A DNA stretch of 64,000 nt from Hyphomicrobiales bacterium (lineage in GTDB: Bacteria > Pseudomonadota > Alphaproteobacteria > Rhizobiales > Rhizobiaceae), in NCBI GenBank assembly GCA_900468535.1, contig UBTY01000016.1, positions 186,001 to 250,000 on the forward strand. The letters are read 5' to 3'. Position 1 is the stretch's first letter; each line of letters begins with the position of its first letter. The notes under the pieces were generated by a model. The model did no database searches, was not told the origin of the DNA, and saw only the letters and a program-made list of their open reading frames with translations. This document shows positions 25,974 through 41,261 of the stretch, piece by piece. The position numbers and the translations under genes were made by a program.

Positions 25974-26061
25974 CATGTCCTCCATCGAGCCCCAAACCAG
26001 ACCGGCCTCCCGGGGCGAATGCGTTAGTCGAATTGCAGCCAGGCAACTGCAGTCCGAGCTC

Positions 26062-26077
26062 TGCAACATCCGTGCCA
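26062..26077 (-). promoter_or_regulatory. sigma-54 (-24/-12) promoter of dctA
   Basis: On the minus strand TGGCACG-N4-TTGCA, an exact match to the RpoN consensus. It lies about 90 bases before the dctA ATG, in the known configuration of rhizobial dctA promoters. Confidence 0.92.
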
Positions 26078-26152
26078 GAACATTCGCGACCATCTATCGA
26101 TTTGATATCTATTCGTATTCCTCTCACGGCTTGGCCTCATAAACGCCGGGAT

Positions 26153-26201
26153 GAGCGGATTTCCGCACAAATCCATTTGACGAAAGTGCGAAATTGCGCA
26201 C
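26153..26201. promoter_or_regulatory. tandem DctD-type upstream activator sites
   Basis: Two imperfect palindromes lie 75-140 bases upstream of the sigma-54 promoter: GAGCGGATTTCCGCACAA (26153-26170) and GTGCGAAATTGCGCAC (26186-26201). Both share the GTGCG/CGCAC half-sites of the DctD enhancer sites known from Rhizobium and Sinorhizobium. The right-hand site ends 8 bases before the first dctB ATG, so DctD binding may also affect dctBD. Confidence 0.75.
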
Positions 26202-26208
26202 ATGATCC

Positions 26209-28071
26209 ATGATGCTCGATAGGATGGCTCAAACAGCGAAAGCGACCCGAAGCACGGCAGCAAACGGCCGGCGAGGATGGGGTATATTCGCGGCGATCGC
26301 GGTTACTCTCCTGGCTTTGGGCTTTGTTGCCGCGGGCTCCTACGCCAGACGCTCGTCGATCGAAGCGCTCGAAAGCCAGAGCCGTACAGACGCCAATCTG
26401 AAGGTCGCCCTTCTGACAGCCGTGATGGAGCGGCCGAGAGCATTGCCACTGCTGCTTGCCGAGGATCAGCAGGTGATAGACGCGCTGCTCTCCCCCCGCA
26501 GCAGCGCGGTCGACATCCTGAACCGGAAGCTGGAACGCCTGGTTACCGGCACGCAGGCGGCGGTCCTTTACGTCATCGGCAAAGACGGCATCGCGATTTC
26601 CTCGAGCAATTGGCGCGAGCCGATCAGCTTCGTCGGCAATGACTATACGTTTCGCGCTTATTTCCAGCGTGCGATGACCGAGGAAACGGCTGAGCATTTT
26701 GCCCTCGGCAGCGTCAGCAAGCGCCCCGGTCTCTACATCGCCAGGCGCGTCGGCAGTGCCGCGGCGCCGCTTGGAGTAGTCGTGGTAAAGCTCGAATTCA
26801 ACCGCCTGGAGGCCGATTGGAGGGACGCGCGGCGCCCCGTCTACGTGACCGATGACCAGGGCGTCGTACTGATCACCAGCATTCCCTCATGGCGCTTCAT
26901 GACAGCGGAGCCGGTACCCGAGAAAGATCTCTCCGCCATCCGTGCCAGCCTGCAATTCGGCGATGCTCCGTTGACGCCGCTGCCAATCATGCGTCCGAAG
27001 ACAATCGATCCCGAAGCGTCGCTCGTCGCCGCCGTGCTGCCCGGCGGCGGCGAAGCAGAATATTTGCGTCTGCGGACCGCCGTTCCAACGACGCCGTGGC
27101 GGCTGGAATATCTCGTACCCACCGAAGCAGCCGTCGCCGCCTCCGTCCGCGAAGTTCGCCTTCTCGTGCTTGCGGCCCTCGTTCCGATCCTGGCGGTCGT
27201 CGCCTTTCTCATCCGGCGCCGTCATGTCGCGGCGGCCAGAATCGCGGCCGAACAATCGATGCGCGAGGAGCTTGAGCGCCGCGTGGTCGAGCGGACCGAG
27301 GATCTCAGCCGCGCGCGTGACCGTCTGCAGGCCGAGATCTCGGATCACAAGGAAACCGAGGCGCAGTTGCAGGTCGTTCAGCAGGAACTCGTCCAGGCAA
27401 ACCGTCTCGCGATCCTCGGCCAGGTCGCGGCCGGCGTCGCGCACGAGATCAACCAGCCGGTTGCCACGATACGCGCCTATGCCGACAACGCCCGCGTGTT
27501 TCTCGACAGGCAGCAAATACGACCCGTCGAGGAAAACCTCGGAGCCATCGCTTCGCTGACGGAGCGCATCGGGACGATCACCGAGGAACTGAAGGCGTTC
27601 GGCCGGAAAGGACGCGCCGCTCCCGAGCCGGTCGACCTTCGCAGCATCATAGAAGGCGCCGTCGTGCTGTTGCGAAGCAGATTCGCGGGCCGGCTGGATG
27701 CGCTGGATATCAGCCTTCCGCCCGCCGACGTCAGGGTGATGGGCAATCGCGTCCGGCTTGAGCAGGTGCTGATCAATCTTTTCCAGAATGCTCTCGAGGC
27801 GCTGGAAGGCAGGCCCGATGCGAAGGTTGAGGTCTCAGTTACGGACACGACCGATATCGTGACCATACGCGTGGCAGACAATGGGCCTGGCATATCGGAA
27901 ACGATCCTGAAGTCGCTGTTTACGCCGTTCAACACATCGAAAGAAAAGGGACTGGGGCTCGGACTGGTGATCTCGAAGGATATCGTCGCCGATTACGGAG
28001 GGCAGATCGACGTCACCAGCAGCGCCGCTGGCACCTGTTTCACCGTCCAACTTCCGAAAGCAAAGACATGA
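26209..28071 (+). CDS. dctB: C4-dicarboxylate sensor histidine kinase DctB
   Basis: Membrane sensor of 620 residues. A first helix (about 25-45) and a second (about 310-330) flank a periplasmic sensor domain of double-Cache type that binds dicarboxylate. Cytoplasmic part: coiled coil with [19 protein letters not shown]-box [19 protein letters not shown] with the phosphorylated His, N-box [14 protein letters not shown]1 VADNGPGIS and G2 [13 protein letters not shown]. The start could be ATG 26209, 26212 or 26224; no good ribosome site separates them. Ends by overlapping dctD (ATGA at 28068-28071). It phosphorylates DctD when substrate is present. Confidence 0.95.
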
Positions 28072-29432
28072 GCGACGCACCTGCCATCTTTCTCATCGAT
28101 GACGACAAGGATCTCTTGCGCGCGACAAGCCAGACGTTGGAGCTCGCCGGCTTTTCAGTCTCCGCATTTTCCACCGCAAGCGAGGCTCTTTCCAACCTGA
28201 CGCCGGATTTCCCCGGCGTGATCGTGTCGGATATTCGGATGCCACAGATCGACGGACTGCAGCTATTCGACCGCGTGCGCAAACTTGATATCGACCTGCC
28301 CGTAATACTTATCACCGGTCACGGCGACATACCGATGGCGGTGAAGGCCATCCAGGATGGCGTCTATGATTTCATCACCAAGCCTTTTGCGGCAGATCGC
28401 CTCGTCCAGAGCGTCCGGCGCGCTGTCGAAAAACGGCGGCTTGTCATGGAAAACCGGGCACTGCGGCGAGCGGGCGAAGAAGCGCGCGACGATCTCCCCC
28501 TGATCGGCCAGACACCGGCGATGGAACGTCTGCGTCGTACGTTGCGACAGATCGCGGACACCGACGTCGACGTGCTCGTGACCGGCGAAACCGGCAGCGG
28601 CAAGGAAGTTGTCGCCAGCCTCCTGCATCAGTGGAGCCGCCGCTCTTCGGGCAATTTCGTGGCGCTCAACTGCGGTGCTCTGCCCGAGACGGTCATCGAA
28701 AGCGAACTTTTTGGGCACGAGCCGGGTGCCTTTACCGGCGCGCAGAAGAAACGCATCGGTCGCATCGAGCATGCAAGCGGCGGCACGCTCTTTCTCGACG
28801 AGATCGAAAGCATGCCGCCGTCGACACAGGTCCAGATGCTGAGAGTGCTGGAAATGCGCGAGGTGACGCCGCTCGGCATCAACGAGGTCAGGCCCGTCGA
28901 TCTCAGGGTGGTTGCGGCTGCGAAGGTCGATCTCAGCGACCCCGGCCAGCGCGGGGAGTTTCGAGAGGATCTGTATTACCGGCTGAATGTCGTGACGATC
29001 TCGATTCCGCCATTGCGGGACAGGCGAGACGATATTCCGCTGCTTTTTGGATATTTCGCGGAACGCGCCGCCAAGCGTTTCAAGCGGGATGTTCCGACAA
29101 TGAGCGCAGGCGCTCATCAGCACCTTGTAACCCATGACTGGCCGGGCAACGTTCGCGAGCTGTCGCATTTTGCGGAGCGTTTCGTTCTTGGGGTCGAGCA
29201 GCCATTGGCTTCCGGAGAAAGCAAGCGTGTCGAAACGGAAGGCGATCTGCCCCTGCCCGATCAGCTGGAACGGTATGAAGCCAGCGTCATTCGCGAGGCA
29301 CTCGACCGGAACGAGGGCGATGTCAAACGAACGATTGCCGCGCTCGGCATCCCGCGCAAGACCTTTTACGACAAACTGCAGAGGCACCGCATCGTCAGGA
29401 GCGATTTCGAACCGGCAGGCAGGAAGAGCTGA
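28068..29432 (+). CDS. dctD: sigma-54-dependent response regulator DctD
   Basis: NtrC-type activator of 454 residues. Receiver domain at 1-120 with acidic pair IDDDKDLL and phospho-acceptor Asp55 in [14 protein letters not shown]+ domain with Walker [11 protein letters not shown], sigma-54 contact loop GAFTGA, Walker [12 protein letters not shown] and arginine-finger region; Fis-type helix-turn-helix at the end ([22 protein letters not shown]). Translation is coupled to dctB by the four-base overlap. It should bind the sites at 26153-26201 and open the dctA promoter. A ten-pair hairpin without T-run (29437-29462) lies right after the stop. Confidence 0.96.
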
Positions 29433-29587: not shown

Positions 29588-30391
29588 TCAGCCGACGTTG
29601 ACGCCGTAGCGGGCAGCCGGCTTGCTATGCGAAAGATTGGGGCCAAGTGCCAGGCGCGCTGTCGTCAGTTGTGCCAGATCGCTTTCATTCGGTAGTGATG
29701 GGATCGTGACCAGCTCACCCTTGTCGAAGCCAGCCAACGAGGCATCGACCATATCGTTGACATCCATCACCATCGACGCGGGAAGATTGTCGACGGAGCC
29801 CCCTGCGCGTTCGAATATTTCGGTCCGGGTCAGGCCAGGCAGCACGGCCTGCACCTTGACACCCTGCTCGGCCACTTCCGCATGGATTCCCTGTGTAAGG
29901 TTAAGCACGAAGGCCTTTGTGGCGCTATATGTGGCGTTGAACCGCTCCGGTATGAATACCACCACAGAGGCGATATTGACGATCGCGCCCCTGCCCCGCT
30001 TGGCGAATGCCTGTGCCGCAGCGACTGCGAGGCGGTTTACCGCGACGACGTTGAGTTCGATCATGTTTTCCAGATAGTCGGCGTCGTCGTCGAGCATCTT
30101 CCCCTTAGGTCCAATGCCCGCATTGTTGACCAGCATCGTGATCGCCGCATCGTCACGCAGCCGTTGTTCGACGACGCGAACATCCGCCCGGTTCGTCAGA
30201 TCTGCCACCAGCACTTCCACCTCAACGCCCTGCTCGGCCTTCAGGCGCTTGGCCAAAGCCGAGAGACGCTTGCCGTCGCGGGCGACAAGAAGGAGATTGT
30301 AGCGGCGCTTTGCCAAGCGATCTGCGTAAGCGGCGCCGATCCCCGAGGAGGCACCGGTGACCACAGCAGTCCCAGGATTGAAAGCAGACAT
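29588..30391 (-). CDS. short-chain dehydrogenase/reductase
   Basis: 267 residues from the ATG at 30391 (MSAFNPGTAVVTGAS), which has GGAATG upstream; a longer frame starts at 30427. NAD(P)-binding motif TGASSGIGAAYADRLA near residue 11, NNAGIG, catalytic serine in NIASVVV and YSATKAF for Tyr/Lys. It resembles the DltE/YdfG-like reductases acting on small carbonyl compounds. Divergent from a MarR regulator 150 bases away with a palindrome between (30422-30433), a common arrangement for self-controlled regulator and target gene. Confidence 0.88.
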   Translation of the reverse strand: MSAFNPGTAVVTGASSGIGAAYADRLAKRRYNLLLVARDGKRLSALAKRLKAEQGVEVEVLVADLTNRADVRVVEQRLRDDAAITMLVNNAGIGPKGKMLDDDADYLENMIELNVVAVNRLAVAAAQAFAKRGRGAIVNIASVVVFIPERFNATYSATKAFVLNLTQGIHAEVAEQGVKVQAVLPGLTRTEIFERAGGSVDNLPASMVMDVNDMVDASLAGFDKGELVTIPSLPNESDLAQLTTARLALGPNLSHSKPAARYGVNVG

Positions 30392-30421
30392 GATGGCATT
30401 CCTTTCCAATTTTAATTTTAC

Positions 30422-30433
30422 TGGCATATGCCA
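30422..30433. promoter_or_regulatory. candidate MarR operator
   Basis: Perfect 12-base palindrome TGGCATATGCCA, in the AT-rich divergent region between SDR (start 30391) and marR-like (start 30545) genes. MarR proteins bind short palindromes in such regions. By-eye inference. Confidence 0.45.
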
Positions 30434-30544: not shown

Positions 30545-31027
30545 ATGAGTGACAAGACCGAAGCACCAGGCAGCTGGGACTACTGCAACAACAGCGCACT
30601 GAAACGCGCCTCGCGCCAGCTTGGCCAACTCTATGAGGATATCATGGCGCAGAGCGGGCTGAGGGCGACGCAGTATGCGCTGCTCACCCAGATCAAGCTC
30701 GGCGGCGCGACACCTCTGAAGGCGCTCGCCGAGGCCATGGTGATGGATCTTTCCGCGCTTGGGCACACGTTGAAGCCGCTCTTGAGGGATGGCCTAGTCG
30801 ACCTAGTACCCGACGAGAAGGATCGTCGCGTAAAGCGCGTTCGGCTGACGGCGTCAGGAGAGGCAAAATGGGCGGAGGCCCAGCTCTTATGGAGAGATGC
30901 ACAGGGCCGGTTCGATCGCGCCTTCGGCAAGGACGCTGCCGATGCCTTGCGACAAACGATGAACCTGATTTCATCAGGCGGTTTCGCGGAGGCCTTCGCC
31001 GCGACGAAAGGCGACGTCACCGAATAG
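30545..31027 (+). CDS. MarR family transcriptional regulator
   Basis: 160 residues with the MarR winged-helix arrangement: helices leading into ATQYALLTQIKLGGATPLKALAEAMVMDLSALGHTLKPLL (helix-turn-helix) and the wing DLVPDEKDRRVKRVRLTASGE. MarR proteins usually repress and respond to phenolic or oxidising ligands. A single Cys at residue 24 (DYCNNSAL) sits near the N-terminal position used by OhrR/MarR-type redox sensors, which is suggestive only. Likely controls the divergent SDR. The next gene is convergent. Confidence 0.88.
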   Translation: MSDKTEAPGSWDYCNNSALKRASRQLGQLYEDIMAQSGLRATQYALLTQIKLGGATPLKALAEAMVMDLSALGHTLKPLLRDGLVDLVPDEKDRRVKRVRLTASGEAKWAEAQLLWRDAQGRFDRAFGKDAADALRQTMNLISSGGFAEAFAATKGDVTE

Positions 31028-31061: not shown

Positions 31062-31406
31062 TCAAACGCGAATGACGTAATCCTTGCGAGTCGTCTCAAT
31101 GACTTCCCAGGTTCCTTTGAAGCCCGGCTTCAAGATCATCCTGTCCCCGGCACGCAGATGAAAAGGCTCTCCACCGTCCTCCGTGACGATGGAGTAACCG
31201 GCCAGTACATTGAAATACTCCCACTCATCATAGACGATGCGCCACTTTCCCGGCGTCGCTTCCCATATGCCGGAATAGATACCGCCATCGGCTTCGTCGA
31301 AATTCCAGGTCCGGAACTGAGGATCACCAGCGATAATCCGGTCGGCGGCTGGAGCGCCAAACTCCGGTTCGACGTTGCTTTCTTCGAAATTGATAGATTT
31401 CGCCAT
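31062..31406 (-). CDS. cupin-3 (DUF861-type) protein
   Basis: 114 residues from the ATG at 31406 (MAKSINFEESNVEP) with GAGAGAC upstream. The pattern DGGIYSGIWEATPGKWRIVYDEWEYFNVLAGYSIVTEDGGEPFHLRAGDRMILKPGFKGTWEV is that of the small DUF861/cupin_3 proteins related to the ureidoglycolate-hydrolase-like and (S)-ureidoglycine aminohydrolase barrel. No convincing full set of metal ligands. Function unknown; may be an aminotransferase- or opine-linked accessory in relatives, but no such gene adjoins here. Confidence 0.72.
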   Translation of the reverse strand: MAKSINFEESNVEPEFGAPAADRIIAGDPQFRTWNFDEADGGIYSGIWEATPGKWRIVYDEWEYFNVLAGYSIVTEDGGEPFHLRAGDRMILKPGFKGTWEVIETTRKDYVIRV

Positions 31407-31604
31407 CGGTCTCTCAGCTTGTTCCGCAGCGCACACTCGTAGAATTGCTGCTGAAATCATTCAACAAATTCAGCCGCCATTGCAACACACCTTCGTTCAG
31501 GTCGCAACAGGTGTGTTCAGAGCAGACGCTTGAGTGGCATCGGAAAGGTGGATGTGTTTTGGGGGAACACAGGGACGGAATGCCAACAGGCGATCACCAG
31601 TGCC

Positions 31605-34457
31605 TTACTGCTGCAGGTGCGAGAGCAGTTCTTCGGCGCGTCTGAGGTCCGGGGTATCCCGTCCCTCCGTCAATCTTTCATAGATGGGCCGAAGAAGCTC
31701 GTCCGCCTCGTTGATACGGCCCTGCGCAAACTGGATAGACGCCAGGTCGGTGGCTGCCCTTAGTTCCCAGAACGAAGCCCCCTGCTCTCGGCTCACCGCA
31801 ACGGACTCTCTCAGATAGTCTGCGGCATCCCTGTCGCTCAGCGCAGGTACGGCCGAAACAATGCTGCCCCGCAGGCGCAACAATTCTGGGAGATGAGAGT
31901 AGTACCCCTTCTCCTCAATTATCCCGGCCGTGTCCTCGGCCAGTGACCACGCTTCCGCAGCTCGGCCGCTTGTCACCAGTCCGGCGATGATCACGAAGTG
32001 GAATCGCACGGTGAACAGGTCGAAGCGTGCGAGGTGAAGGTCGGTGAGCTGCCTCCGCAGCGCCTCCACCCCCGCTTCGACCTCGCCTCGTCTGATCGCA
32101 ATCTCGGCTCTGTAGGCGTGCCCCATCGACAGGTAGGGCGCAAACGCGTCGGTTTCGGCGCGAGCCATGAACGGAATCAGGTGTTCCTCGGCGAGATCGA
32201 ATTCACCCATCCACAGCAGTGTCGCAATCGAGCTCAGCGCGATCGCGAACGAAACCGGATGGCGCATGCTCTCTGCGTCCTTGAACGCCTGACGGATCAC
32301 GGAGCGCGCCTGATCGGGATACCCCTGGAGCCAGAGATTCGTCGACCAGCCTATCGCCGCCCAGGTGTTGTGATCGAAACCATAGTGTATCTGCCTGCTC
32401 TCGAGGGACCGTCCGGGATGGAGTACGGGCGCCAGCGTCGTGTGTGCTTCTTTCAAACGCCCGACGAGGCAGTAGGACAGACCAAGCAGGGTGCGCGACA
32501 GAGCCTCAACCGAGGGATCCTGCAATCTGCCGGCAATCTCGGCGCAGCGTTCGGCATATTGCAGGCATTGCCTGAACTCGCCGCTGCGAAGATTGAAGAA
32601 GTGCAGTGGGCCGAGCAAGCGGGCCGCATTGAGAAGATCTCCGCGGGCCTCCGCCAGTTCCAGGCTCCTGACGAGCGCCGTGGCAGACTTTTCGTCGTGC
32701 CCGCGCGCAAACATCAGTGTCACGCCGAGCGATGCCTGAAGCTGCATTTCCTCTCGGCTACCGCGTGTCGTTTCGTCGAGGGATTGTAGCGCGCGCTCCG
32801 TCCAGCGGTGAGACTCGGGGAGCAAGCCCATTGCCCGGAAGACCGGTGAGACTGCAGCCACAACTGCGATCCCGAGCGGTGCGTCTCCAGTATCGCTGAA
32901 ACACCACTCAAGCGCTTCCCGCACATTGTTCAGCGCGTTGAAATGCGGCGCTCGCTCGAGCGCTGTTGAAAGAGAAGACCACTCGCTGCCGTTCTGCTCG
33001 AACCAAAGCCGGCAAAAGGTCGCGTGTCGACGCGATAGATCCGCGCGCTCGGCGTCGCTGCTGAGAGCGATCACATAGGCCCGCGTGGTGTCGAGCAAAC
33101 GATATCGCATCATCGCCCCAACCGGACGCGCGGCAACCATCGATTTCTCGACGAGATTGTCTATTGCCGCGAACACCGCGGCACGATCGAGGGTGTCGTC
33201 CGTCACCACCTCGAGCGCGGCATCGAGAGGAAAATTGCCAACAAATACGGCCAGCCGGCGCAAGACGGTGCGCTCTGTCTCCGAGAGGAGACCATAGCTC
33301 CAATCGAGGGTTGCCTGCAGGGTCTGGTGGCGTGGGGGCGCAGTTCGCAAACCCTGCCAAAGGTGCGTCAATCTCTGGTCCAGCAGCGCGGCTGTCTGCT
33401 CCAGGCCGTACGCCTCGACACGTCTGGCGGCAAGCTCGATGGCAAGCGCGACGCCGTCGAGCTTGCGGCATATGTCGCAGACGATGGCGGCTTCCGCCTC
33501 GTTCACGTCAAGACGCGCACCACTGGCGACGGCGCGTTCGACGAACAGCTGCGCTGCAGGATATTGCTGGACCGCAGCGGCAGCAAACTCCGGAACCTCG
33601 GGCGGACACGCCAATGCATCCAATCGATAGATCCGTTCGCCTTCGATGCGCAGCGCCTCGCGACTGGTCGCGATGACGTGAACCCGCGGCGCGGCACCCA
33701 AAATCGCCGCCACCATCGGCGCAACGGCATCGATCAGATGCTCGCAAGTATCGAGAACCAGAAGGAGACGCTTGTCCCGGATAAAGCGGATGATGCCCGG
33801 CGTCGCGTCTTCGGCCTGGACCGACAAGCCCAGCAGGGTCGCCAGGGTGGCCGAAGCAAGTCGAGGATCGCCGACGACACCGAAATCGACGAACAGCACC
33901 TGACCGCCGAATTCGCCGGCAACCTGATGCGCGGCCGCGATCGCGACCGTCGTCTTGCCGACGCCGCCCGGTCCGACGACCGTCAGGAGCCGACTATCGG
34001 TCGCCTGCGCGGCAAGCTTGAGCACATCGACATCACGCCCGACAATCCGGCTCAGGCGCGGAGGAAGATTGGCGTGCGGGAAAGGCTCGGCTTCTGTTTG
34101 CAGTTCGTTGTCACCGTGCGTTGACTTTTCGACGGGAGCAACAAAGCAGTAGCCCCGCCCTGCCACGGTGGTGATGTAACGCGCACCATGCTGGCCATCC
34201 CCCAGAGCCTTGCGCAAACCTGTCATATGGAAGCGAAGGCTTCCCTCTTCGACAACGGCGTCGGGCCAGACGTGGTGCATCAGATCTTTCTTGCTGATGA
34301 TCTCGTTGGGCGCGGTGACAAGCGTGATCAGGATATCGAGCGCACGTCCACCGAGATCGACAGGCACCCCCTCCCTCGTCAAGAGCCGCTCGCCGATGGC
34401 CAATCTGAACGGCCCGAAGCGAACGCCCGTGTAGTCCTCGCCTGCTGTAATCGCCAT
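31605..34457 (-). CDS. winged-helix / P-loop ATPase / TPR transcriptional regulator
   Basis: A 950-residue signal-integrating regulator. Residues 10-108 form an OmpR/PhoB-type winged helix (RALDILITLVTAPNEIISKKDLMHHVWP then RKALGD and YITTVAGRGYCFV). A P-loop ATPase follows, with Walker A VGPGGVGKTTVA (about 161-172) and Walker B LLLVLDTCEH (about 231-240), then an NB-ARC-like winged region and, from about 480, helical TPR-like repeats. This layout matches the transcriptional ATPases that sense a small molecule through TPRs and open the DNA-binding head on ATP binding. It diverges from the epoxide-hydrolase run at 34710 with tandem CTAACAAC repeats between, and probably controls it. Confidence 0.85.
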   Translation of the reverse strand: MAITAGEDYTGVRFGPFRLAIGERLLTREGVPVDLGGRALDILITLVTAPNEIISKKDLMHHVWPDAVVEEGSLRFHMTGLRKALGDGQHGARYITTVAGRGYCFVAPVEKSTHGDNELQTEAEPFPHANLPPRLSRIVGRDVDVLKLAAQATDSRLLTVVGPGGVGKTTVAIAAAHQVAGEFGGQVLFVDFGVVGDPRLASATLATLLGLSVQAEDATPGIIRFIRDKRLLLVLDTCEHLIDAVAPMVAAILGAAPRVHVIATSREALRIEGERIYRLDALACPPEVPEFAAAAVQQYPAAQLFVERAVASGARLDVNEAEAAIVCDICRKLDGVALAIELAARRVEAYGLEQTAALLDQRLTHLWQGLRTAPPRHQTLQATLDWSYGLLSETERTVLRRLAVFVGNFPLDAALEVVTDDTLDRAAVFAAIDNLVEKSMVAARPVGAMMRYRLLDTTRAYVIALSSDAERADLSRRHATFCRLWFEQNGSEWSSLSTALERAPHFNALNNVREALEWCFSDTGDAPLGIAVVAAVSPVFRAMGLLPESHRWTERALQSLDETTRGSREEMQLQASLGVTLMFARGHDEKSATALVRSLELAEARGDLLNAARLLGPLHFFNLRSGEFRQCLQYAERCAEIAGRLQDPSVEALSRTLLGLSYCLVGRLKEAHTTLAPVLHPGRSLESRQIHYGFDHNTWAAIGWSTNLWLQGYPDQARSVIRQAFKDAESMRHPVSFAIALSSIATLLWMGEFDLAEEHLIPFMARAETDAFAPYLSMGHAYRAEIAIRRGEVEAGVEALRRQLTDLHLARFDLFTVRFHFVIIAGLVTSGRAAEAWSLAEDTAGIIEEKGYYSHLPELLRLRGSIVSAVPALSDRDAADYLRESVAVSREQGASFWELRAATDLASIQFAQGRINEADELLRPIYERLTEGRDTPDLRRAEELLSHLQQ

Positions 34458-34579
34458 GGCTCCATCTTCCCGGCCGACGTCCCTACGGGCCGGACATTAG
34501 TTCAAGGTCCCGCCCCACGCCACTGAGCTAAGGTATTGGGTTTCGATGAAACTTGGGCGCCCAAGCGACTGCGATGGAC

Positions 34580-34623
34580 GTTGTTAGAGAGCTGTGTCTG
34601 CGGCCCTAACAACACCTAACAAC
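34580..34623. promoter_or_regulatory. candidate operator: repeated CTAACAAC
   Basis: CTAACAAC occurs at 34606-34613 and again at 34616-34623 (10-base period), and once inverted as GTTGTTAG at 34580-34587. Two direct repeats one helical turn apart are what OmpR-type winged helices bind. It lies in the divergent region between the regulator (start 34457) and the epoxide hydrolase (start 34710). Confidence 0.5.
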
Positions 34624-34709
34624 GCATAACGAGCGCTATGCCGCCTGCGGTCGTACGGTTCAGTCAGCACAAAGGTGCGACCGAAACGGACACGACCGAG
34701 GAGACGACA

Positions 34710-36029
34710 ATGCCTACGAACGTTATCGATGATGTCGATCATGATCGCCGAATGCTTTTGGGTGCGGCAGCGCTTGGCGTGGCTGCCATGAGTACGATCT
34801 GCCTTCTACCTTCACCGCTGGCCGCTGCGCCGGCTGCCGACGCAATCACGCCGTTCCGCGTTCACTTCAAGAATGATGCGCTGAGCGATCTGCGCCATCG
34901 CGTGGCAGCAACCCGCTGGCCGGACCGCGAAACGGTAACCGACCACTCGCAGGGCGTCCAGCTGGCCACCATCAAGGCGCTCGCCAAGCACTGGGCGACG
35001 GACTACGACTGGCGCAAGATCGAGGCGAAGCTGAACTCCTATCCGCAATTCACCACGAAGATCGACGGCCTGGACATTCATTTCATTCACGTCCGCTCCA
35101 AGCATGAAAATGCCTTGCCGATCATCGTTACCCACGGGTGGCCGGGCTCTATCATCGAGCAGTTGAAGATCATCGGGCCGTTGACCGATCCGACCGCGCA
35201 CGGTGGCAACGCCGAAGATGCCTTCCACGTCGTCATCCCCTCGCTTCCGGGCTACGGCTTCTCCGGCAAGCCGACCGAACCGGGCTGGAACCCGCCGCGC
35301 ATCGCCAAGGCGTGGGCGGAGCTGATGCAGCGTCTCGGCTATACCAAGTACGTCGCCCAGGGCGGCGACTGGGGCAATGCCGTGACCGAACTGATGGCGG
35401 TACAGGAGCCTGCCGGGCTGATCGGCATCCACACCAACATGGCGGCGACCGTTCCAGCCGAAATCTCGAAAGCTCTCTCCGCCGGTACCCCGCCCGTTGA
35501 TCTGACGGCTGACGAAAAGCGCGCATGGGACCAGCTCGACGACTTCTACAAGAACGGTCTCGGCTACGCGATCGAAATGAACAACCGGCCCCAGACACTC
35601 TACGGCATCGTCGACTCACCTGTTGGCCTGGCGGCCTGGATGCTCGATCATGACATCCGCAGCTACGACATGATCACTCGCGTTTTCGACGGCAAGACGG
35701 AAGGCCTGACGAAGGACGACATCCTCGACAACGTCACGCTCTACTGGCTAACCAATACGGCGATATCGTCGGCGCGACTCTACTGGGACAACGCTCACTT
35801 CCCGTCGGGCGGCTTCTTCGACCCACGCGGCATCAAGCTCCCGGTCGCCGTCAGTGCCTTCCCGGACGAGATCTATCAGGCGCCACAGAGCTGGGCCGAG
35901 AAGGCCTATCCAAAGCTGATCTTTTACAACCGGCCAGCGAAGGGCGGACACTTCGCCGCCTGGGAGCAACCGACGCTTCTGACAGCGGATCTGAGGGCCG
36001 CCTTCAAGCCGCTCCGCAAAGCGATCTGA
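34710..36029 (+). CDS. epoxide hydrolase (EHN-type) with Tat-like leader
   Basis: 439 residues from ATG 34710, chosen for GAGGAG six bases upstream; an earlier in-frame ATG (34638) lacks a site. The N-terminus DHDRRMLLGAAALGVAAM looks like a twin-arginine leader with a cleavage site near AAAPAA, so export to the periplasm is likely. The EHN domain (FRVHFKNDALSDLRHRVAATRWPD) is followed by the alpha/beta-hydrolase core: oxyanion loop THGWPGSIIEQ, nucleophile Asp in GGDWGNAV and catalytic His in KGGHFAAWEQP. It would hydrate epoxides to diols. First gene of the plus-strand run, diverging from the ATPase regulator. Confidence 0.88.
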   Translation: MPTNVIDDVDHDRRMLLGAAALGVAAMSTICLLPSPLAAAPAADAITPFRVHFKNDALSDLRHRVAATRWPDRETVTDHSQGVQLATIKALAKHWATDYDWRKIEAKLNSYPQFTTKIDGLDIHFIHVRSKHENALPIIVTHGWPGSIIEQLKIIGPLTDPTAHGGNAEDAFHVVIPSLPGYGFSGKPTEPGWNPPRIAKAWAELMQRLGYTKYVAQGGDWGNAVTELMAVQEPAGLIGIHTNMAATVPAEISKALSAGTPPVDLTADEKRAWDQLDDFYKNGLGYAIEMNNRPQTLYGIVDSPVGLAAWMLDHDIRSYDMITRVFDGKTEGLTKDDILDNVTLYWLTNTAISSARLYWDNAHFPSGGFFDPRGIKLPVAVSAFPDEIYQAPQSWAEKAYPKLIFYNRPAKGGHFAAWEQPTLLTADLRAAFKPLRKAI

Positions 36030-36035
36030 GCTTAC

Positions 36036-36058
36036 GCGGCGCGCAATCGTCGCGCCGC
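36036..36058. repeat. hairpin between epoxide hydrolase and next gene
   Basis: GCGGCGCG / CGCGCCGC with seven-base loop, no T-run. Within a same-strand run, so it may tune or separate expression rather than fully terminate. Confidence 0.45.
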
Positions 36059-36097
36059 CTCTCCCCATTCATCCACCTCTACGCAAGGAGAAAGACA

Positions 36098-36640
36098 ATG
36101 ACCGAGAACCAGATCGTCGATTCCAGCTTCAGCGCCATCATCAATGCTCCGATCGAGAAGATCGATATTCCCACGTGGTGCTTCACGCTGCCCGAAAAGG
36201 AATATCAGGGCTGCTCGCCGGCCCATATCGCGGCGGGCTTCACGACGGCACCGGATGGGAAGCGCATGTCTATCAACGTCGAGACGATCGGCGGCAGCCT
36301 TATGGTCCAGCACTATGTCGAAACGCTCGGCAAGAAGGATCATCTGATCCTCGATTCCGACTCTGACGTGTTCACACCGACCGGCCGCGTCACAATTCAC
36401 GTGACCTGGGAGCTGAGCGTCAAGGCGATCGACAAGGACCGGTGCGAATTCACCAATCGCGTTCAATCCTTCGCCACCAAGGAAATGATGGCGTCCCTCG
36501 ACCGTCAGGGCATCCCCTTTGAAATCTTCCGCACGCAGCGCCAGCCGATGTCGATTGCTCACAACAAGGGTGAAACGCCGCTTTTTGCCGCCAGCATCGA
36601 GCGAGCCGCGCTTCGCGGCGGACAATCGAAAGCTGCCTGA
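36098..36640 (+). CDS. SRPBCC-like protein of unknown function
   Basis: 180-residue soluble protein, ribosome site GGAGAAAG just upstream. The pattern of strand-rich sequence (MSINVETIGGSLMVQHYVETLG, HLILDSDSDVFTPTGRVTIHVTWELSVKAI) with a final long helix suggests a START/SRPBCC (Bet v 1) ligand-binding barrel, but this is only a fold guess. The gene is 68 bases after the epoxide hydrolase and 17 before the isochorismatase gene, so it is probably cotranscribed and might bind a hydrophobic substrate handled by its neighbours. Confidence 0.55.
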   Translation: MTENQIVDSSFSAIINAPIEKIDIPTWCFTLPEKEYQGCSPAHIAAGFTTAPDGKRMSINVETIGGSLMVQHYVETLGKKDHLILDSDSDVFTPTGRVTIHVTWELSVKAIDKDRCEFTNRVQSFATKEMMASLDRQGIPFEIFRTQRQPMSIAHNKGETPLFAASIERAALRGGQSKAA

Positions 36641-36657
36641 GGCGCAAGGAGAGAACA

Positions 36658-37305
36658 ATGACCGAATTGTCTTATGAGCGCAGCATCACAGGCCTTCTGG
36701 TGGTCGACCCCTACAACGATTTCATCTCCGAGGGCGGCAAGATCTGGCCTCGCATCAAGGAAGTTGCCGAAACCAACAACTGCGTGCCGCACATGGAGCA
36801 GATCCTGAAGACGGCCCGCCAGGTGGGAGTGCCTGTGTTCTTCGCCATGCACCATCGGTACCAGCCGGGTGACTACGAAAACTGGAAGTATGTCGCACCG
36901 ATCCAACGCATGGCCTGGCATCGCAAGAGCTTCGAGTTCGGCACCTGGGGCGGAGAATTCAAGGCCGAATTCGTTCCCGTCTCCGGCGAGGTCGTCGCCT
37001 CCGAGCACTGGTGCTCGAGCGGTTTTGCGAACACCGATCTCGATCTGCAGCTCAAGCGACAGGGCATACAGAGGCTGATCGTGATCGGCCTCGTCGCCCA
37101 CACCTGCATCGAGGCAACCGTCCGCTTCGCCGCCGAGCTTGGCTACGACGTAACCGTCGTCAAGGATGCCGTGGCGGACTACTCCGCCGAGATGATGCAC
37201 GCCGCCCTCGAGATCAACCTGCCCAGCTACGCCAGCGCGATCGTGACAACGAAGGAAATCGTCACTGCCCTGACGGAGATGGAGGCAGTGGCACCGGCTG
37301 CGTAA
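36658..37305 (+). CDS. isochorismatase-family cysteine hydrolase
   Basis: 215 residues with the Rossmann-like isochorismatase fold. Catalytic Asp lies in LLVVDPYNDF (about residues 13-22) and the nucleophilic Cys150 in IGLVAHTCIEATVRFAAELGYDVTVVKDAVAD, a typical family segment. Such enzymes hydrolyse isochorismate, nicotinamide, biuret or carbamoyl compounds; the true substrate is open. GGAGAG lies before the ATG. Sits between SRPBCC-like and Ohr genes in the same run. Confidence 0.85.
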   Translation: MTELSYERSITGLLVVDPYNDFISEGGKIWPRIKEVAETNNCVPHMEQILKTARQVGVPVFFAMHHRYQPGDYENWKYVAPIQRMAWHRKSFEFGTWGGEFKAEFVPVSGEVVASEHWCSSGFANTDLDLQLKRQGIQRLIVIGLVAHTCIEATVRFAAELGYDVTVVKDAVADYSAEMMHAALEINLPSYASAIVTTKEIVTALTEMEAVAPAA

Positions 37306-37427
37306 GCGAAGCAAGAAAAATCGCGGCAGCTCTGCTGTAACAGCCCGAAGCGCGACCTCCGAGATGACATTCGGCAGAAGAACCCCGCCAACCCGAGCCC
37401 CACAACCACTGACAAGAGGAACTCATC

Positions 37428-37856
37428 ATGGACCAGATGCCGAATTCAAAAGTCCTTTACACGGCAAAGACACACACCAGCGGCGGCCGCGAACACGGCG
37501 TCGCGCGCAGCTCCGACGGACGTCTCGATGTCCGTCTCGGGCTGCCTGGCACGGCACGGATCGGCACCAACCCCGAGCAGCTGTTCGCCGCCGGATGGTC
37601 GGCCTGCTTCGAAAGTGCGATCGGGCTGATCGTCCAAAAGAAACGCGCCACCCTTTCCGGCGACGTGACGATCGATGCCGAGGTCGACCTGAACCTGTCG
37701 CCGACCGATGGCTATTCGCTGACTGCTCGCCTGAACGTCACCATTCCCGGCGTCGACGCTGACGTTGCCCAAGCCATCGTCGAGGAGGCGCATCAGATCT
37801 GCCCGTACTCGAAGGCGACCCGCGGCAACATCGACGTAACGATCAGACTGGTCTGA
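37428..37856 (+). CDS. ohr: organic hydroperoxide resistance protein (Ohr/OsmC family)
   Basis: 142-residue thiol peroxidase with two catalytic cysteines: Cys60 in AAGWSACFESAI and Cys125 in HQICPYSKATRGNI, both in the Ohr (not OsmC) context. Reduces organic hydroperoxides using lipoyl partners. The gene is 122 bases after the isochorismatase gene in the same direction. Ohr genes are usually paired with an OhrR (MarR) regulator; none adjoins it here, which fits control by the cluster's ATPase regulator instead. Confidence 0.9.
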   Translation: MDQMPNSKVLYTAKTHTSGGREHGVARSSDGRLDVRLGLPGTARIGTNPEQLFAAGWSACFESAIGLIVQKKRATLSGDVTIDAEVDLNLSPTDGYSLTARLNVTIPGVDADVAQAIVEEAHQICPYSKATRGNIDVTIRLV

Positions 37857-37911
37857 CGGGACGCCTCAAATAGGCAGCCCGATCCGTCCGATGCCAGGAA
37901 GGAATAGTGAA

Positions 37912-38109
37912 ATGATGTCTTCATTGGGAACTGCGCTGGTCACTGGCGCATCTTCTGGCATCGGCGCAATATATGCCGAAAGGCTCGCGCGCCGGGAATA
38001 CGACCCGATTCTCCAGAGCGCGGTGGAAAAGGTGGCTATCGAGATCACCAATGCGACCGGACGGAGCGTGACTTCCGCTGGGCGAACCTCGACAATGCGG
38101 AGGATCTGA
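37912..38109 (+). pseudogene. truncated SDR remnant
   Basis: A good ribosome site (AGGAAGGA) precedes ATG 37912. Residues 3-30 (GTALVTGASSGIGAIYAERLARREYD) match the start of the full SDR at 29588-30391, then the sequence departs and stops after 66 codons (65 residues), losing the NAD-binding remainder and the Ser/Tyr/Lys centre. From about 38010 a different frame, up to the TAA near 38203, reads as plausible protein (PERGGKGGYRDH, RWANLDNAEDLRQVEARKHAF, RYLKAAHA). So this is a deletion fusion or decayed gene rather than a working one. Confidence 0.6.
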
Positions 38110-38224
38110 GACAGGTGGAAGCGAGGAAGCACGCCTTCCGCTTGTTCCGGAGATTTCCTAATCCGCCCCCGCCGCGCTATCTCAAAGCGGCGCATGCCTA
38201 AATCGAGCCCGAAAGGAAGCAGCG

Positions 38225-39238
38225 ATGAAGTCGTCATCGATTGTTCTGGCCAGCCGCCCGACTGGCGTTCCAACCTCGGATAATTTCCGCGCGGTTGAAA
38301 GCGACATCAGGCAACCCGAGCAGGGCGAAGTCGCGCTCCGCGTCCTCTTTCTGTCCCTGGATCCCTATATGCGCGGCCGCATGAGCGAGGCGAAATCCTA
38401 TGCCAAGCCCGTTCCAGTCGGAGGGATCATGGAGGGCGAGACAGTTTGCGAGGTAACGCTGTCGCGACATCCGGATTTCCAAACTGGCGACATTGTCCGC
38501 GCGATGACCGGATGGTGCACGCACGCCACCCTGGACGCGCAGCGGGTCCGGCGAGTCAACACACACGGGGCGCCGGTTTCCACAGCCCTTGGCGTCCTCG
38601 GCATGCCCGGCTTCACCGCTTATAGCGGCATGAAGGTGATCGGCCAGCCGAGGAAGGGCGAGACGGTCGTCGTCGCCGCGGCGTCCGGTCCGGTGGGATC
38701 CCTCGTCGGACAGCTCGCAAAACTCGCCGGCGCGCGGGCAGTCGGGATCGCCGGCGGCAGCGACAAGTGCGCTTATGTGAAGAACGAACTCGGCTTCGAT
38801 GCCGTCGTCGATCATCGATCACAGAACTTCGCGTCTGAACTTGAAGGCGTTTGCACGAAGGGAATCGACGTCTATTTCGAGAACGTCGGCGGCCATGTCT
38901 GGGACGCAGTGCTGCCACTGCTGAATCAATATGCCCGCGTGCCCGTCTGCGGACTTATCGCCCAGTATAATGGACCTGGCCAATCGGATCATGACCGGCT
39001 GCCGGCGACCATGTCCGCCGTCCTGCGTCGCAGCCTTCTTCTGAGAGGCTTCATCAATACGGAATTCCTTGGTGCGCATTATGAAAGCTTTCAGCAAGAG
39101 ATTGGCCCGCTCGTCGCGTCAGGCGAGATCAAGTTTCGCGAAGACATCGTTGACGGTCTTCGGAACGCCCCGGAGGCGTTCATTGGAATGCTCTCGGGCA
39201 GCAATTTTGGAAAGCTCCTCATCCGTGTCGCGGAATAG
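38225..39238 (+). CDS. NADP-dependent oxidoreductase, CurA-type zinc-independent MDR
   Basis: 337 residues of the medium-chain reductase superfamily without zinc ligands. Typical family parts are LFLSLDPYMRGRMS, LGMPGFTAYSGMKVIGQPRKGETVVVAAASGPVGSLVGQLAKLAGARAVGIAGG (NADP-binding Rossmann region) and the C-terminal GKLLIRV. CurA/prostaglandin-reductase-like proteins saturate alpha,beta-unsaturated ketones and aldehydes. Last gene of the plus-strand run; a perfect hairpin follows at 39239-39278. Confidence 0.9.
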   Translation: MKSSSIVLASRPTGVPTSDNFRAVESDIRQPEQGEVALRVLFLSLDPYMRGRMSEAKSYAKPVPVGGIMEGETVCEVTLSRHPDFQTGDIVRAMTGWCTHATLDAQRVRRVNTHGAPVSTALGVLGMPGFTAYSGMKVIGQPRKGETVVVAAASGPVGSLVGQLAKLAGARAVGIAGGSDKCAYVKNELGFDAVVDHRSQNFASELEGVCTKGIDVYFENVGGHVWDAVLPLLNQYARVPVCGLIAQYNGPGQSDHDRLPATMSAVLRRSLLLRGFINTEFLGAHYESFQQEIGPLVASGEIKFREDIVDGLRNAPEAFIGMLSGSNFGKLLIRVAE

Positions 39239-39323: not shown

Positions 39324-41261
39324 CTACCTGATCTGCCGCAGGTATTCCGCTCGGTCGAAGGGATTGGTTCCCAGGCGCAGGCGTGCGGGCTGAGCCCCTG
39401 AAATAGGGGCGTAGCGCTCGAACGAGTGCTCCAGCACGCCGGTGCCACCCGTCAACCCCGGCAACTGCCGCTGAATGGCGGGGATCTTGCCCGAGGTAAT
39501 GCTTCCTTCCAGTCTTGCGGCGCCGTGGGCGATTTTCGAGCTCGAGATCATCGCACCGGATTTCGCAAGCTGGGTGTGTATTGCATTCAGGGATGTAGCC
39601 GGTACGTCAAGGAGGAAGCGATCGACCGGTTCGCAAACGACTGTCTTCGCCGAGGAGAGCGCCGATGCCAGCACCAACGGGCTCAGATTTCGGAAGTCCG
39701 CAGCTGTGCTGGATGGCGAACTTTGTCCGGCTGCGATCATGGCGACCCGACAATCGATGATCTGCCAGCCATAAATGCCAGACTTCAGCGTCTCGAACAC
39801 CGTATCCTCGACCGCCCGATAGAAGCTCGCGGGCATCTGACCGACATCGACTTCGAGGGAGAAGACGTTGCCGCTACCCTCCGGCCGCGGCTCTACCTGT
39901 AATCCGACCGTTGCCAGAAAAGGATTGGGGGCCTTGAATATGACCTCAAGACCGCTTGCCGTGCCTTGCAACCTTTCGGCACAAATGATCGTGCTCTCCT
40001 CGAACAAAGCGTCAAGACTGAAGTCGTTCAGCAAGGTGGCTTGGATGATTTCCTTCTGCACCTCGCCGTAGAGGGAAACATATACCTCGTTGGCATCGTC
40101 GTTGGTGCGCAGGTTGATCAGTGGGTCCTGCTCCGACAGCTGCTGCAGGGCCAGCCAGAGCTTCGCGCTCTCCGAAGGCCGCCGGGACAATATTCTGGTT
40201 TCCAGGGTTGGCGGCGGGAAATGAAAGTCGCCTGTCGACTTGTTTTGCTCTCCCAGCTGGTCGCCGATCCTGGCCTCGGCCAATCCGCCGATCTTGGCGA
40301 TTTGACCGGCGTGGAGATCGCGAACGCTCTCTACATTCCCTTGCGAGAAGAGCTGGATGCTTGTCACCCTCGCCGACCCTCGGGGCAAATCGACATATCC
40401 GCGCGTCGCGACAGTGCCTGACGTGAGATTGACATAGGCAATCTTCTCGCCACCCCATCCACGCTCGATCTTGAAAACGCTTCCTTCAAGAGGACCATTC
40501 GCATCGGGGGTTCGACCGGGCAGCAAGGTTTCGACAGCCTCAATCAACTCCCCGACACCGAGACCGGTCATCGCCACCCCGCAATATGACGGATGCAAAA
40601 GTCCGCTGGCCACCTGATCAATCAGGGCGAGCTTCAATCTTTCAATACCAATCCGATCGGGCGCCAGGACATAGTCCTCCAGGAGAGCATCGTCGTTGGC
40701 GGCAAGCGCTTCGCAGACTGTCGAAAAAAAGGGCTCCCGCGCAATCTCGGACTTGTGGACCGTGGCATGCCGGTACCCGGAATCCACCACATCCATCATC
40801 GCGACAGGCCGAACCGACAATCGTGTCGCCATCTCGTCCAGCAGCTCGTGATACCGCGTACCCATGCGGTCCATCTTGTTGATAAAGAAGATGAACGGGA
40901 TACTGAGACGCTGCAGCGCCCTGACGAGAACATATGTCTGCGCCTGCACGCCCTCGACCGCCGAGACCACGACCACTGCCGCGTCAAGCAGTTGGAGTAT
41001 ACGCTCCACTTCCGCGATGAAATCCGGATGCCCGGGAGTATCGATCAGGTTGACGACGAGGTCGCCGATGGTGAACGACACCACCGCAGACGCTATGGTG
41101 ATGCCGCGTTGCCGTTCCAGTTCGAGGCTATCGGTGTGGGTATTGCCGTCATCGACACCGCCCAGCTTGGCGATTGTGCCTGTGTCAAAGAGGATTCGTT
41201 CAGTGAGGCTGGTCTTTCCAGCATCCACATGGGCCAGGATGCCCAGATTCAATGTGCGCAT
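39324..41261 (-). CDS. OtrA/TetM-like tetracycline resistance ribosomal protection protein
   Basis: 645-residue EF-G-like GTPase. G1 is AHVDAGKTSLTERIL, G2 region TDSLELERQRGITI, G3 DTPGHPDF, G4 NKMD. Further landmarks LYGEVQKEI and SGIYGWQIIDCRV are shared by TetM and OtrA. The whole reads closest to OtrA of Streptomyces (for example SAVEGVQAQT, KIERGWGGEKIAYVNLTSGT). Such proteins remove tetracycline from the ribosome. Whether it gives resistance here is unknown. Start ATG 41261 with the possible SD GAGAAG ten bases upstream but buried in a hairpin. Probably horizontally acquired. Confidence 0.85.
   Translation of the reverse strand: MRTLNLGILAHVDAGKTSLTERILFDTGTIAKLGGVDDGNTHTDSLELERQRGITIASAVVSFTIGDLVVNLIDTPGHPDFIAEVERILQLLDAAVVVVSAVEGVQAQTYVLVRALQRLSIPFIFFINKMDRMGTRYHELLDEMATRLSVRPVAMMDVVDSGYRHATVHKSEIAREPFFSTVCEALAANDDALLEDYVLAPDRIGIERLKLALIDQVASGLLHPSYCGVAMTGLGVGELIEAVETLLPGRTPDANGPLEGSVFKIERGWGGEKIAYVNLTSGTVATRGYVDLPRGSARVTSIQLFSQGNVESVRDLHAGQIAKIGGLAEARIGDQLGEQNKSTGDFHFPPPTLETRILSRRPSESAKLWLALQQLSEQDPLINLRTNDDANEVYVSLYGEVQKEIIQATLLNDFSLDALFEESTIICAERLQGTASGLEVIFKAPNPFLATVGLQVEPRPEGSGNVFSLEVDVGQMPASFYRAVEDTVFETLKSGIYGWQIIDCRVAMIAAGQSSPSSTAADFRNLSPLVLASALSSAKTVVCEPVDRFLLDVPATSLNAIHTQLAKSGAMISSSKIAHGAARLEGSITSGKIPAIQRQLPGLTGGTGVLEHSFERYAPISGAQPARLRLGTNPFDRAEYLRQIR

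What the first reader, a model, noticed from the sequence alone, without database searches (positions are those of the whole stretch)
31605..39238. Regulated electrophile/peroxide module under a winged-helix ATPase-TPR regulator
Seen: a 950-residue regulator (OmpR-type head, P-loop ATPase, TPR-like tail) diverges from epoxide hydrolase (exported), SRPBCC-like protein, isochorismatase-type hydrolase, Ohr peroxidase, an SDR remnant and a CurA-type NADPH reductase, all on one strand, with CTAACAAC repeats 10 bases apart between. Known: each enzyme family acts on reactive epoxides, hydroperoxides, unsaturated carbonyls or carbamoyl compounds. Inferred: one pathway that detects and clears a specific natural toxin, perhaps plant-derived, with the TPRs sensing it. 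I know of no described system with this set.
Basis: partly seen in the sequence, partly recalled or inferred. Interest (0 to 1): 0.6.

Follow-up and report, generated by a model that had tools for sequence, protein, structure and literature searches.

The report
STAND-regulated peroxide and epoxide defence module
A large ATP-binding gene switch sits beside genes for enzymes that destroy organic peroxides and epoxides, and the same switch, enzymes and three-part DNA control element recur together in many soil and root bacteria, which points to a shared chemical-defence circuit that still needs testing at the bench.

Summary
A 950-residue regulator (OmpR-type winged helix, STAND ATPase, TPR tail) diverges from EH, SRPBCC-like, isochorismatase, Ohr, SDR-remnant and CurA genes. 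The two CTAACAAC copies belong to three direct repeats with a 10-bp period; the relaxed pattern occurs once in the 6.18-Mb genome. Of 80 loci fetched by regulator homology alone, 74 have Ohr, 73 an epoxide-hydrolase-type enzyme, and 77 the repeat by a matrix trained on other groups, against 1 of 80 reversed controls; a TA outside the matrix lies at exactly +47 in 91 of 113 sites. Of 16 fetched loci with regulators below 47% identity, none has Ohr or a strong site; a seventeenth, L044, left out of that count, has sites. Best reading: an activator working like AfsR/MalT, without the SARP BTA domain, that switches on Ohr plus probably exported epoxide hydrolases. The SRPBCC, isochorismatase and CurA genes are lineage add-ons. 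A specific toxin, plant origin and TPR sensing are untested. Parts are of known kinds; ten paper searches listed no description of the circuit.

The parts
31605..34457 (-). Regulator: OmpR-type winged helix (about residues 12-106), STAND/NB-ARC ATPase (about 142-280) with a further winged-helix-like region, TPR superhelix (about 457-949)
   Evidence: AF2 pLDDT 84.9; Foldseek best 6mfv STAND-TPR, then Apaf-1/CED-4/NLRs
34580..34587 (-). Inverted half-site GTTGTTAG facing the regulator gene; similar inverted sequences stand near this place in some Rhizobium relatives
   Evidence: seen by eye rows L108-L110
34606..34633 (+). Operator: three direct repeats, period 10 bp: CTAACAAC / CTAACAAC / ATAACGAG
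34654..34659 (+). Probable -10 element TACGGT, 47 nt after the T of the first repeat
   Evidence: (TA at +47 in 91 of 113 sites)
34710..36029 (+). EHN-family epoxide hydrolase, 439 aa from the likely true start, Tat-like signal; the ORF extends up to 34638
36098..36640 (+). SRPBCC-like protein, 180 aa
   Evidence: (no sequence hit)
36658..37305 (+). Isochorismatase-family cysteine hydrolase, 215 aa
37428..37856 (+). Ohr-family organic hydroperoxide peroxidase, 142 aa, Cys60 and Cys125
37912..38173 (+). Decayed SDR gene: pieces in two frames, middle missing
38225..39238 (+). CurA-type NADPH-dependent curcumin/dihydrocurcumin reductase family, 337 aa
   Evidence: NF058644, above cut-off

Best explanation
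The regulator is a STAND-type transcription activator for an organic-peroxide/epoxide defence module. Inferred mechanism: in the resting state the ATPase is held inactive by its TPR sensor. An inducer (a lipophilic peroxide or epoxide, or something that accompanies it) releases it, ATP binding lets subunits assemble, and three winged-helix heads occupy three tandem half-sites about 59 to 32 bases upstream of the start. The third site lies over the place of the missing -35 element, so the bound heads recruit RNA polymerase to a promoter whose conserved core part is a -10 beginning with TA. This switches on Ohr (reduces organic hydroperoxides) and one or two probably exported epoxide-hydrolase-type enzymes (EHN type, soluble-EH type, or both). 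In this Rhizobium lineage an SRPBCC protein, an isochorismatase-type hydrolase and a CurA reductase (takes enones) are added. Peroxide, epoxide and enone are three reactive classes that arise from oxidised unsaturated lipids, so oxidised lipids (oxylipins) are my best guess for the target. Shown by sequence: the gene linkage, the repeat, its fixed distance to the TA, and the signal-like N-termini. Inferred: binding, activation, inducer, export and substrates.
For: Linkage: of 80 loci brought in by regulator homology alone, 74 have Ohr and 42 EH, 48 a soluble-EH-type hydrolase, 38 of them with it directly after Ohr (best PDB match of the L131 copy 5bov, a putative epoxide hydrolase, E 3e-132); EH or this hydrolase in 73, and Ohr + either hydrolase + site in 71. 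Comparison inside the genus, fetched loci: regulator identity >=47%: Ohr in 17 of 17, EH 15, site 16; <47%: Ohr 0 of 16, EH 1, strong site 0. Operator: held-out-group matrix, 77 of 80 loci against 1 of 80 reversed; the site keeps its place when gene order changes (two opposed copies between ohr and an EH-ohr-regulator operon). Promoter: TA at +47 in 91 of 113 sites, at most 12 at any other offset from +28 to +69. Specificity: own genome 1 site; 60 genus genomes: 15 sites, 10 at such modules; 385 class genomes: 2 sites, both at one module. Third helix of the head: residue 76 is Phe in 80 of 80 module regulators aligned (window + 79 loci); in 18 paralogues Val 15, Ala 2, Phe 1. Export: a loose twin-arginine pattern in 39 of 47 EH frames (37 with a stricter one) and in 44 of 48 soluble-EH-type frames. 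Precedents: AfsR and PimR bind tandem direct repeats (PMC10936776, PMC5930380, passages). Ohr and a putative epoxide hydrolase are both H2O2-induced in B. japonicum (PMC3420878, passages); I could not show that these genes are module members.
Against: No binding, expression or enzyme data. Positions relative to the start site are inferred from the TA. The putative -10 is off-consensus in Rhizobium (TACGGT, TAGGTT). L044 (Bradyrhizobium sp. 195 plasmid; regulator only 40%, no Ohr or EH in the stretch) carries three operator-like sites; my script's locus range left it out of the comparison. L129 (Nitrospirillum, 59% regulator) has neither Ohr, EH nor site, though its contig ends about 3 kb upstream; L168 and L186 also lack a site but are cut by contig ends. 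Of the 77 loci with a site, L151, L154 and L165 score only 16-17 bits, and L154 has neither Ohr nor EH. The genus pattern found the module site in 10 of the 15 genomes that have such a regulator, and 4 of its 15 sites (plus 1 of 4 in the order, L208) lie at no module. The class pattern misses the window's own site and the Bradyrhizobium form. The 80 loci are not independent (27 Bradyrhizobium; several are the same genomes as in the genus sample), and the matrix was seeded from the same 80 loci, though the tested group was always left out. The strict rule 'top hit beats 5 shuffles and lies upstream of a called module ORF' gave only 60 of 80; some failures look like wrongly called ORF starts, but I did not recount. 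Three further Ohr homologues of the own genome (66%, 58%, 42%) have no site nearby. The oxylipin idea rests on family chemistry only.
Confidence: 0.72

Rival explanations
1. The triple repeat is the site of another, unlinked factor (or of a general stress activator), and the STAND regulator is a neighbour that controls something else.
For: No binding data; the L044 locus, with a regulator of only 40%, carries the same kind of site.
Against: Sites are found mostly where the regulator subfamily is, were not found beside three other Ohr genes of the own genome, and have the tandem layout expected for an OmpR-type head.
Confidence: 0.12
2. The regulator represses: bound repeats overlap the -35 region and block RNA polymerase until an inducer is present, as OhrR does at ohr.
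For: The third repeat would overlap the -35 position; the known Ohr switch OhrR is a repressor (PMC7141136, abstract and passages).
Against: I see no -35 motif to block, the distance to the TA is rigid, and STAND/OmpR-type relatives with tandem repeats (AfsR, PimR) are activators.
Confidence: 0.12
3. A catabolic rather than defensive module: the enzymes take apart one specific compound as food, and the regulator senses it.
For: Isochorismatase/SRPBCC/SDR genes; related clusters in R. etli and R. leguminosarum sit with RidA, enoyl-CoA hydratase, aldehyde dehydrogenase and a transporter.
Against: The part shared most widely is Ohr, a peroxidase, and epoxide-hydrolase-type enzymes; among the 25 of 51 Pfam families shown for 73 downstream proteins (of 131 listed), none matched by two or more members is an uptake or ring-cleavage family.
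Confidence: 0.2
4. Chance neighbourhood: ordinary enzyme genes beside one of many paralogous regulators.
For: Genomes of the genus can hold many related regulators (up to 15 matches at E <= 0.001, some to the head alone).
Confidence: 0.02

Closest known systems
AfsR (large SARP, Streptomyces)
   Same: OmpR-type head + STAND ATPase (NOD) + TPR; tandem direct repeats overlapping the -35 region, where the protein also engages sigma region 4 (PMC10936776, passages)
   Different: AfsR has a BTA domain after the head, not found here; two 11-bp repeats reaching into the -35/-10 spacer instead of three 10-bp repeats ending near -32; other targets
PimR and other SARP-LAL regulators
   Same: Operator of three direct repeats beside the regulator gene (PMC5930380, passages)
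   Different: 11-bp period, operator upstream of the -35 (class I activation proposed there), other C-terminal half, antibiotic genes
MalT and GutR
   Same: STAND activators that need inducer and ATP (as described in PMC10936776, passage)
   Different: Other DNA-binding domains (recalled) and sugar-use genes
OhrR-ohr
   Same: Dedicated switch for an Ohr peroxidase
   Different: OhrR is a small MarR-family Cys-based repressor on inverted repeats (PMC7141136, passages; family name from listing); this is a 950-aa ATPase with direct repeats
PhoB/OmpR response regulators
   Same: Winged-helix head and tandem direct repeats (repeats recalled)
   Different: No receiver domain found; ATPase-TPR body instead

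Membership tests
STAND transcription regulators | P-loop NTPase of NB-ARC/STAND kind | tested here: met
   GPGGVGKTT at 162-170, NB-ARC E 3.6e-4 and nSTAND E 1.1e-4 (both below Pfam cut-off); fold match 6mfv and Apaf-1
STAND transcription regulators | C-terminal superstructure-forming repeat sensor | tested here: met
   TPR_12; helical repeats 457-949 in the model; that it senses is not tested
STAND transcription regulators | Inducer- and ATP-dependent oligomerisation | not testable with these tools
   -
SARP / AfsR family | OmpR-type DNA-binding domain | tested here: met
   PF00486 E 2.8e-15; model residues 12-106
SARP / AfsR family | BTA domain next to the head | tested here: not met
   no such Pfam match; ATPase begins about 35 residues after the head
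LAL (LuxR) regulators | C-terminal LuxR-type HTH | tested here: not met
   no such Pfam match; tail is helical repeats to the end
OmpR/PhoB response regulators | Receiver domain | tested here: not met
   no such Pfam match
OhrR | MarR fold, reactive Cys | tested here: not met
   no MarR match in the regulator; the MarR gene 30545-31027 is a separate gene, not found in the six closest loci
Ohr peroxidases | Family model and two catalytic Cys | tested here: met
   TIGR03561 159 bits, cut-off 89; Cys60, Cys125; catalytic role recalled
EHN epoxide hydrolases | EHN domain and alpha/beta-hydrolase core with Asp/His/Glu motifs | tested here: met
   PF06441; HGWPGS 142, GGDWG 218, GGHFAAWEQP 412, aligned to 5f4z; residue roles recalled
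CurA reductases | NF058644 equivalog cut-off | tested here: met
   500 bits, cut-off 440
SRPBCC superfamily | Fold | tested here: inconclusive
   Z 12.1, rmsd 3.6, 148 aligned to 6rp3, but model pLDDT 62

The most novel reading that the evidence does not exclude
An NLR-like chemical sensor of alphaproteobacteria: a STAND ATPase whose TPR arm reads oxidised lipids (for instance plant oxylipins at the root) and which, by three heads on three 10-bp repeats, fires a periplasm-facing peroxide/epoxide defence. The related regulators that many of these genomes hold (up to 15 matches at E <= 0.001 in one genome, some to the head alone) would each be a sensor for another compound with its own variant of the triple repeat; three loci of more distant regulators (L044, L057, L100) already show such repeats.
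Probability: 0.25. Interest if true: 0.82.

Novelty: new variant of a known kind. Interest (0 to 1): 0.62.

Why it matters
The switch for Ohr peroxidases in the papers I saw is the small Cys-based repressor OhrR. Here an unrelated ATP-driven regulator appears to hold that role in a good number of rhizobia and soil alphaproteobacteria, coupled to probably exported epoxide hydrolases, with a sharply defined operator. It gives a ready DNA element to test and to predict targets, a candidate inducible promoter for biosensors, and a handle on what the many orphan wHTH-STAND-TPR regulators of rhizobia sense.

Tried and rejected
Tested and dropped: (1) a 5'-terminal RNA hairpin (CAGCAC-N4-GTGCAG) seen after the -10 in Rhizobium: over 66 site rows the mean folding z was -0.34 and only 10 were below -1.5, so it is not a general part. 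(2) A period-10 repeat of any sequence beside 18 more distant regulators in 17 loci: above the shuffle maximum only at L057, so not shown to be general. (3) The flanking MarR 30545-31027 and cupin 31062-31460 as members: not found in the six closest loci; in the 80 loci one cupin hit and no MarR hit above 45%. The flanking SDR 29588-30427 could not be judged in that way, because most of its hits there (44-50%) lie by the module's own SDR place. (4) The whole enzyme set as the unit: not supported. (5) Literature: ten searches. Judged by the titles and abstract beginnings listed, none is about a STAND regulator of ohr or this operator; searches matched 586 and 84 papers, of which 20 each were listed. 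Papers were seen as passages only (PMC10936776, PMC5930380, PMC3420878, PMC7141136, PMC3788728). (6) Whether B. japonicum bll4012/bll3418 belong to the module could not be decided.
Full report
WHAT IS THERE. The window lies in a 6.18-Mb genome of the genus Rhizobium as the collection groups it: a same-genus genome, G049, has a contig of the length of an R. grahamii plasmid, and the closest named regulators are from Rhizobium. By eye, Shine-Dalgarno-like stretches stand before all five intact enzyme genes. The EH reading frame starts at 34638 by the mechanical rule, but relatives start at the ATG equal to 34710, which gives MPTNVIDDVDHDRRMLLGAAALGVAAM..., a twin-arginine-like export signal. In the 80 named loci, 39 of 47 EH frames match a loose twin-arginine pattern (37 a stricter one); three second copies (L115, L117, L118) have a Sec-like N-terminus instead. 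No signal predictor was run. The SDR between Ohr and CurA is decayed here; an open frame stands at that place in L108 and L110.

THE OPERATOR. CTAACAAC stands at 34606 and 34616 and nowhere else in the window. Relatives show that the unit is three direct repeats with a 10-bp period, of general form cTMACAnc-nn-cTMACAac-nn-MTAACGGGCG. In the own genome TAAC-N6-TAAC-N6-TAAC and the more relaxed TMAY-N6-TMAY-N6-HAACGDGY each occur once, at this place; reversed controls 0. In 60 genomes of the genus a relaxed pattern gives 15 sites in 12 genomes: 10 at a regulator-Ohr/EH module (of 15 genomes that have such a regulator), 1 beside a more distant regulator (G048:C8), 4 elsewhere; reversed control 3. 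In 385 genomes of the class a stricter pattern, which misses the window's own site and the Bradyrhizobium form, gives 2 sites, both in one genome and both at its module, reversed control 0; by the spacing of its sites that genome is probably the same as L130, so it is not a new case. In 297 genomes of the order, a form that admits the Bradyrhizobium variant gives 4 sites: 2 between Ohr and regulator, 1 near a contig end beside an alpha/beta-hydrolase-like gene, 1 unexplained (L208); reversed control 1. The module is patchy: at E <= 1e-180 only 5 of the 385 class genomes, the own one included, have a regulator match, 3 of them at 47% or more.

CONSERVATION. One scan of named genomes with a regulator alignment returned 80 loci, the best of 575: Rhizobium, Mesorhizobium, Bradyrhizobium, Afipia, Ensifer, Phyllobacterium, Mycoplana, Skermanella, Inquilinus, Reyranella, Vineibacter, Desertibaculum and others. 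Ohr lies in the stretch (up to 9 kb each side) in 74 of 80, EH in 42, isochorismatase in 7, the SRPBCC-like gene in 6, CurA in 3. A second hydrolase, whose L131 copy has a putative epoxide hydrolase (5bov) as best solved relative, is in 48 of 80, directly follows Ohr in 38, and matches a twin-arginine pattern in 44 of 48. EH or this hydrolase is in 73 of 80; Ohr, one of the two hydrolases and a site are together in 71. A Pfam count of 73 further genes downstream of sites (of 131 listed) found alpha/beta hydrolases in 17, SDRs in 8, cytochrome P460 in 6. So the core is regulator + Ohr + epoxide-hydrolase-type enzyme, and the window's SRPBCC, isochorismatase and CurA genes are a local extension: EH, SRPBCC, isochorismatase and Ohr stand in this order beside the regulator in L068-L072 and L088 (with the second hydrolase inserted in L070 and L088), with CurA in four of these six. 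Comparison inside the genus: fetched loci with a regulator of >=47% identity have Ohr in 17 of 17, EH in 15 and a site in 16 (the miss, L079, is near a contig end); loci with regulators below 47% have Ohr in 0 of 16, EH in 1, and no site above 20 bits. That script began at L048 and so left out L044 (40%, no Ohr or EH found in the stretch, three operator-like sites), which goes against a clean split. Some of these genomes are also among the 80 (for example L068 and L108), so the two sets overlap.

PROMOTER GEOMETRY. With a 32-bp matrix trained only on other taxonomic groups, 77 of 80 loci have a site above 15 bits, against 1 of 80 reversed sequences; misses are L129, L168, L186, and L151, L154 and L165 are weak (16-17 bits). 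A stricter count that also required the top hit to beat five shuffles and lie upstream of a called module ORF gave 60 of 80. The matrix ends about 30 bases after the first repeat, yet a TA dinucleotide stands at exactly +47 in 91 of 113 sites; no other offset from +28 to +69 exceeds 12, and the background rate is 0.8%. Taken as the first two bases of the -10, this puts the three repeats at about -59, -49 and -39, the last over the -35 position. Such rigid spacing, on one face of the helix, and no -35 motif that I can see, fit an activator that touches RNA polymerase. When gene order differs, the element moves with the promoters: where ohr diverges from an EH-ohr-regulator operon, several loci have two opposed copies between them.

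THE REGULATOR. The model (pLDDT 84.9) shows an OmpR-type winged helix, a STAND ATPase and a long TPR superhelix; the best structural match is a STAND-TPR protein (6mfv), then Apaf-1, CED-4 and plant NLRs. In the third helix of the head residue 76 is Phe in all 80 module regulators aligned (window and 79 loci; L109, whose gene is split, was left out), while 18 more distant regulators have Val (15), Ala (2) or Phe (1). This agrees with a clade-specific operator but does not prove contact; the L044 regulator carries Val although similar operators stand beside it.

FUNCTION. Ohr reduces organic hydroperoxides; EHN enzymes open epoxides; CurA-type enzymes reduce enones (family knowledge). Together these are reactive classes made when unsaturated lipids oxidise, which is why I favour oxidised lipids, of the cell or of a plant host, as the target. 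This is inference. In B. japonicum two Ohr genes and a putative epoxide hydrolase are induced by H2O2 (PMC3420878, passages), and one of those Ohr genes 2.3-fold by indole-acetic acid (PMC3788728, passage); I could not link these locus tags to the module. In Azorhizobium, OhrR represses ohr, and loss of Ohr lowers nodule number and nitrogenase activity (PMC7141136, abstract and passages).

COMPARISON. AfsR has the same head, ATPase and TPR plan and binds two 11-bp direct repeats over the -35 region, but has a BTA domain that was not found here (PMC10936776, passages). PimR uses three repeats with an 11-bp period upstream of the -35 (PMC5930380, passages). So it works like these, but is not a SARP. 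I filed it as a new variant of a known kind: known parts, a new regulator class for Ohr and epoxide hydrolases, and a new operator. Ten searches of the open-access library listed no description (see Tried and rejected); most subscription papers are not covered.

LIMITS. Everything is sequence evidence. The 80 loci are related to each other, and 27 are Bradyrhizobium by my grouping. Activation, inducer, oligomer, export and substrates are untested.

Noticed in passing
window 39324-41261 (-): EF-G-like GTPase that matches models of tetracycline ribosomal protection proteins, those listed all below their cut-offs (642 bits against 775 for the general model); probably a distant member.
   Followed up: no
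window 24639-29432: By eye: a dicarboxylate/cation symporter gene beside a sensor kinase and a sigma-54-type response regulator, a likely dicarboxylate uptake and control set.
   Followed up: no
L042, L043, L089, L090, L092 (rhizobial plasmids): SRPBCC-like + isochorismatase pair at about 81-88% identity without the triple repeat; where annotated (L042, L043, L089) it lies in larger clusters with SDR, RidA, enoyl-CoA hydratase, VOC and EH genes: a related enzyme set under other regulators.
   Followed up: partly
L045, L046: Distant SRPBCC-like homologues beside a quinone oxidoreductase gene and a LysR regulator (Agrobacterium, Ancylobacter).
   Followed up: no
L199 (own genome C83), around 6341-8113: A second Ohr (58%) beside a Tat-like 349-aa protein, with neither this regulator nor the operator seen in the stretch.
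   Followed up: partly
L044 (Bradyrhizobium sp. 195 plasmid p195_1) 1438, 8738, 8819: Three operator-like sites in a stretch with a 40% regulator, facing a hypothetical gene, xanthine-dehydrogenase-type genes and the SRPBCC-isochorismatase pair.
   Followed up: partly
L057 at 8087 (-) and L100 (G059:C3:255258): Triple-repeat-like sites beside more distant regulators (about 36-38% identity), a hint that such regulators use variants of the same operator plan.
   Followed up: partly
L208 (G971:C2:946803): A good operator match with no module gene within about 1.5 kb.
   Followed up: no
L109 9001-11850: The regulator gene is split into two frames in this genome although operator and enzymes are kept.
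   Followed up: no
L170: Record titled Mycobacterium sp. KBS0706 carries a promoter region nearly like those of Inquilinus (L184, L185); the label is probably wrong.
   Followed up: no
window 34660-34690 and Rhizobium relatives: Inverted repeat of the form CAGCAC-N4-GTGC(AG) just after the -10, shared by EH and ohr promoters in Rhizobium but not general elsewhere.
   Followed up: yes
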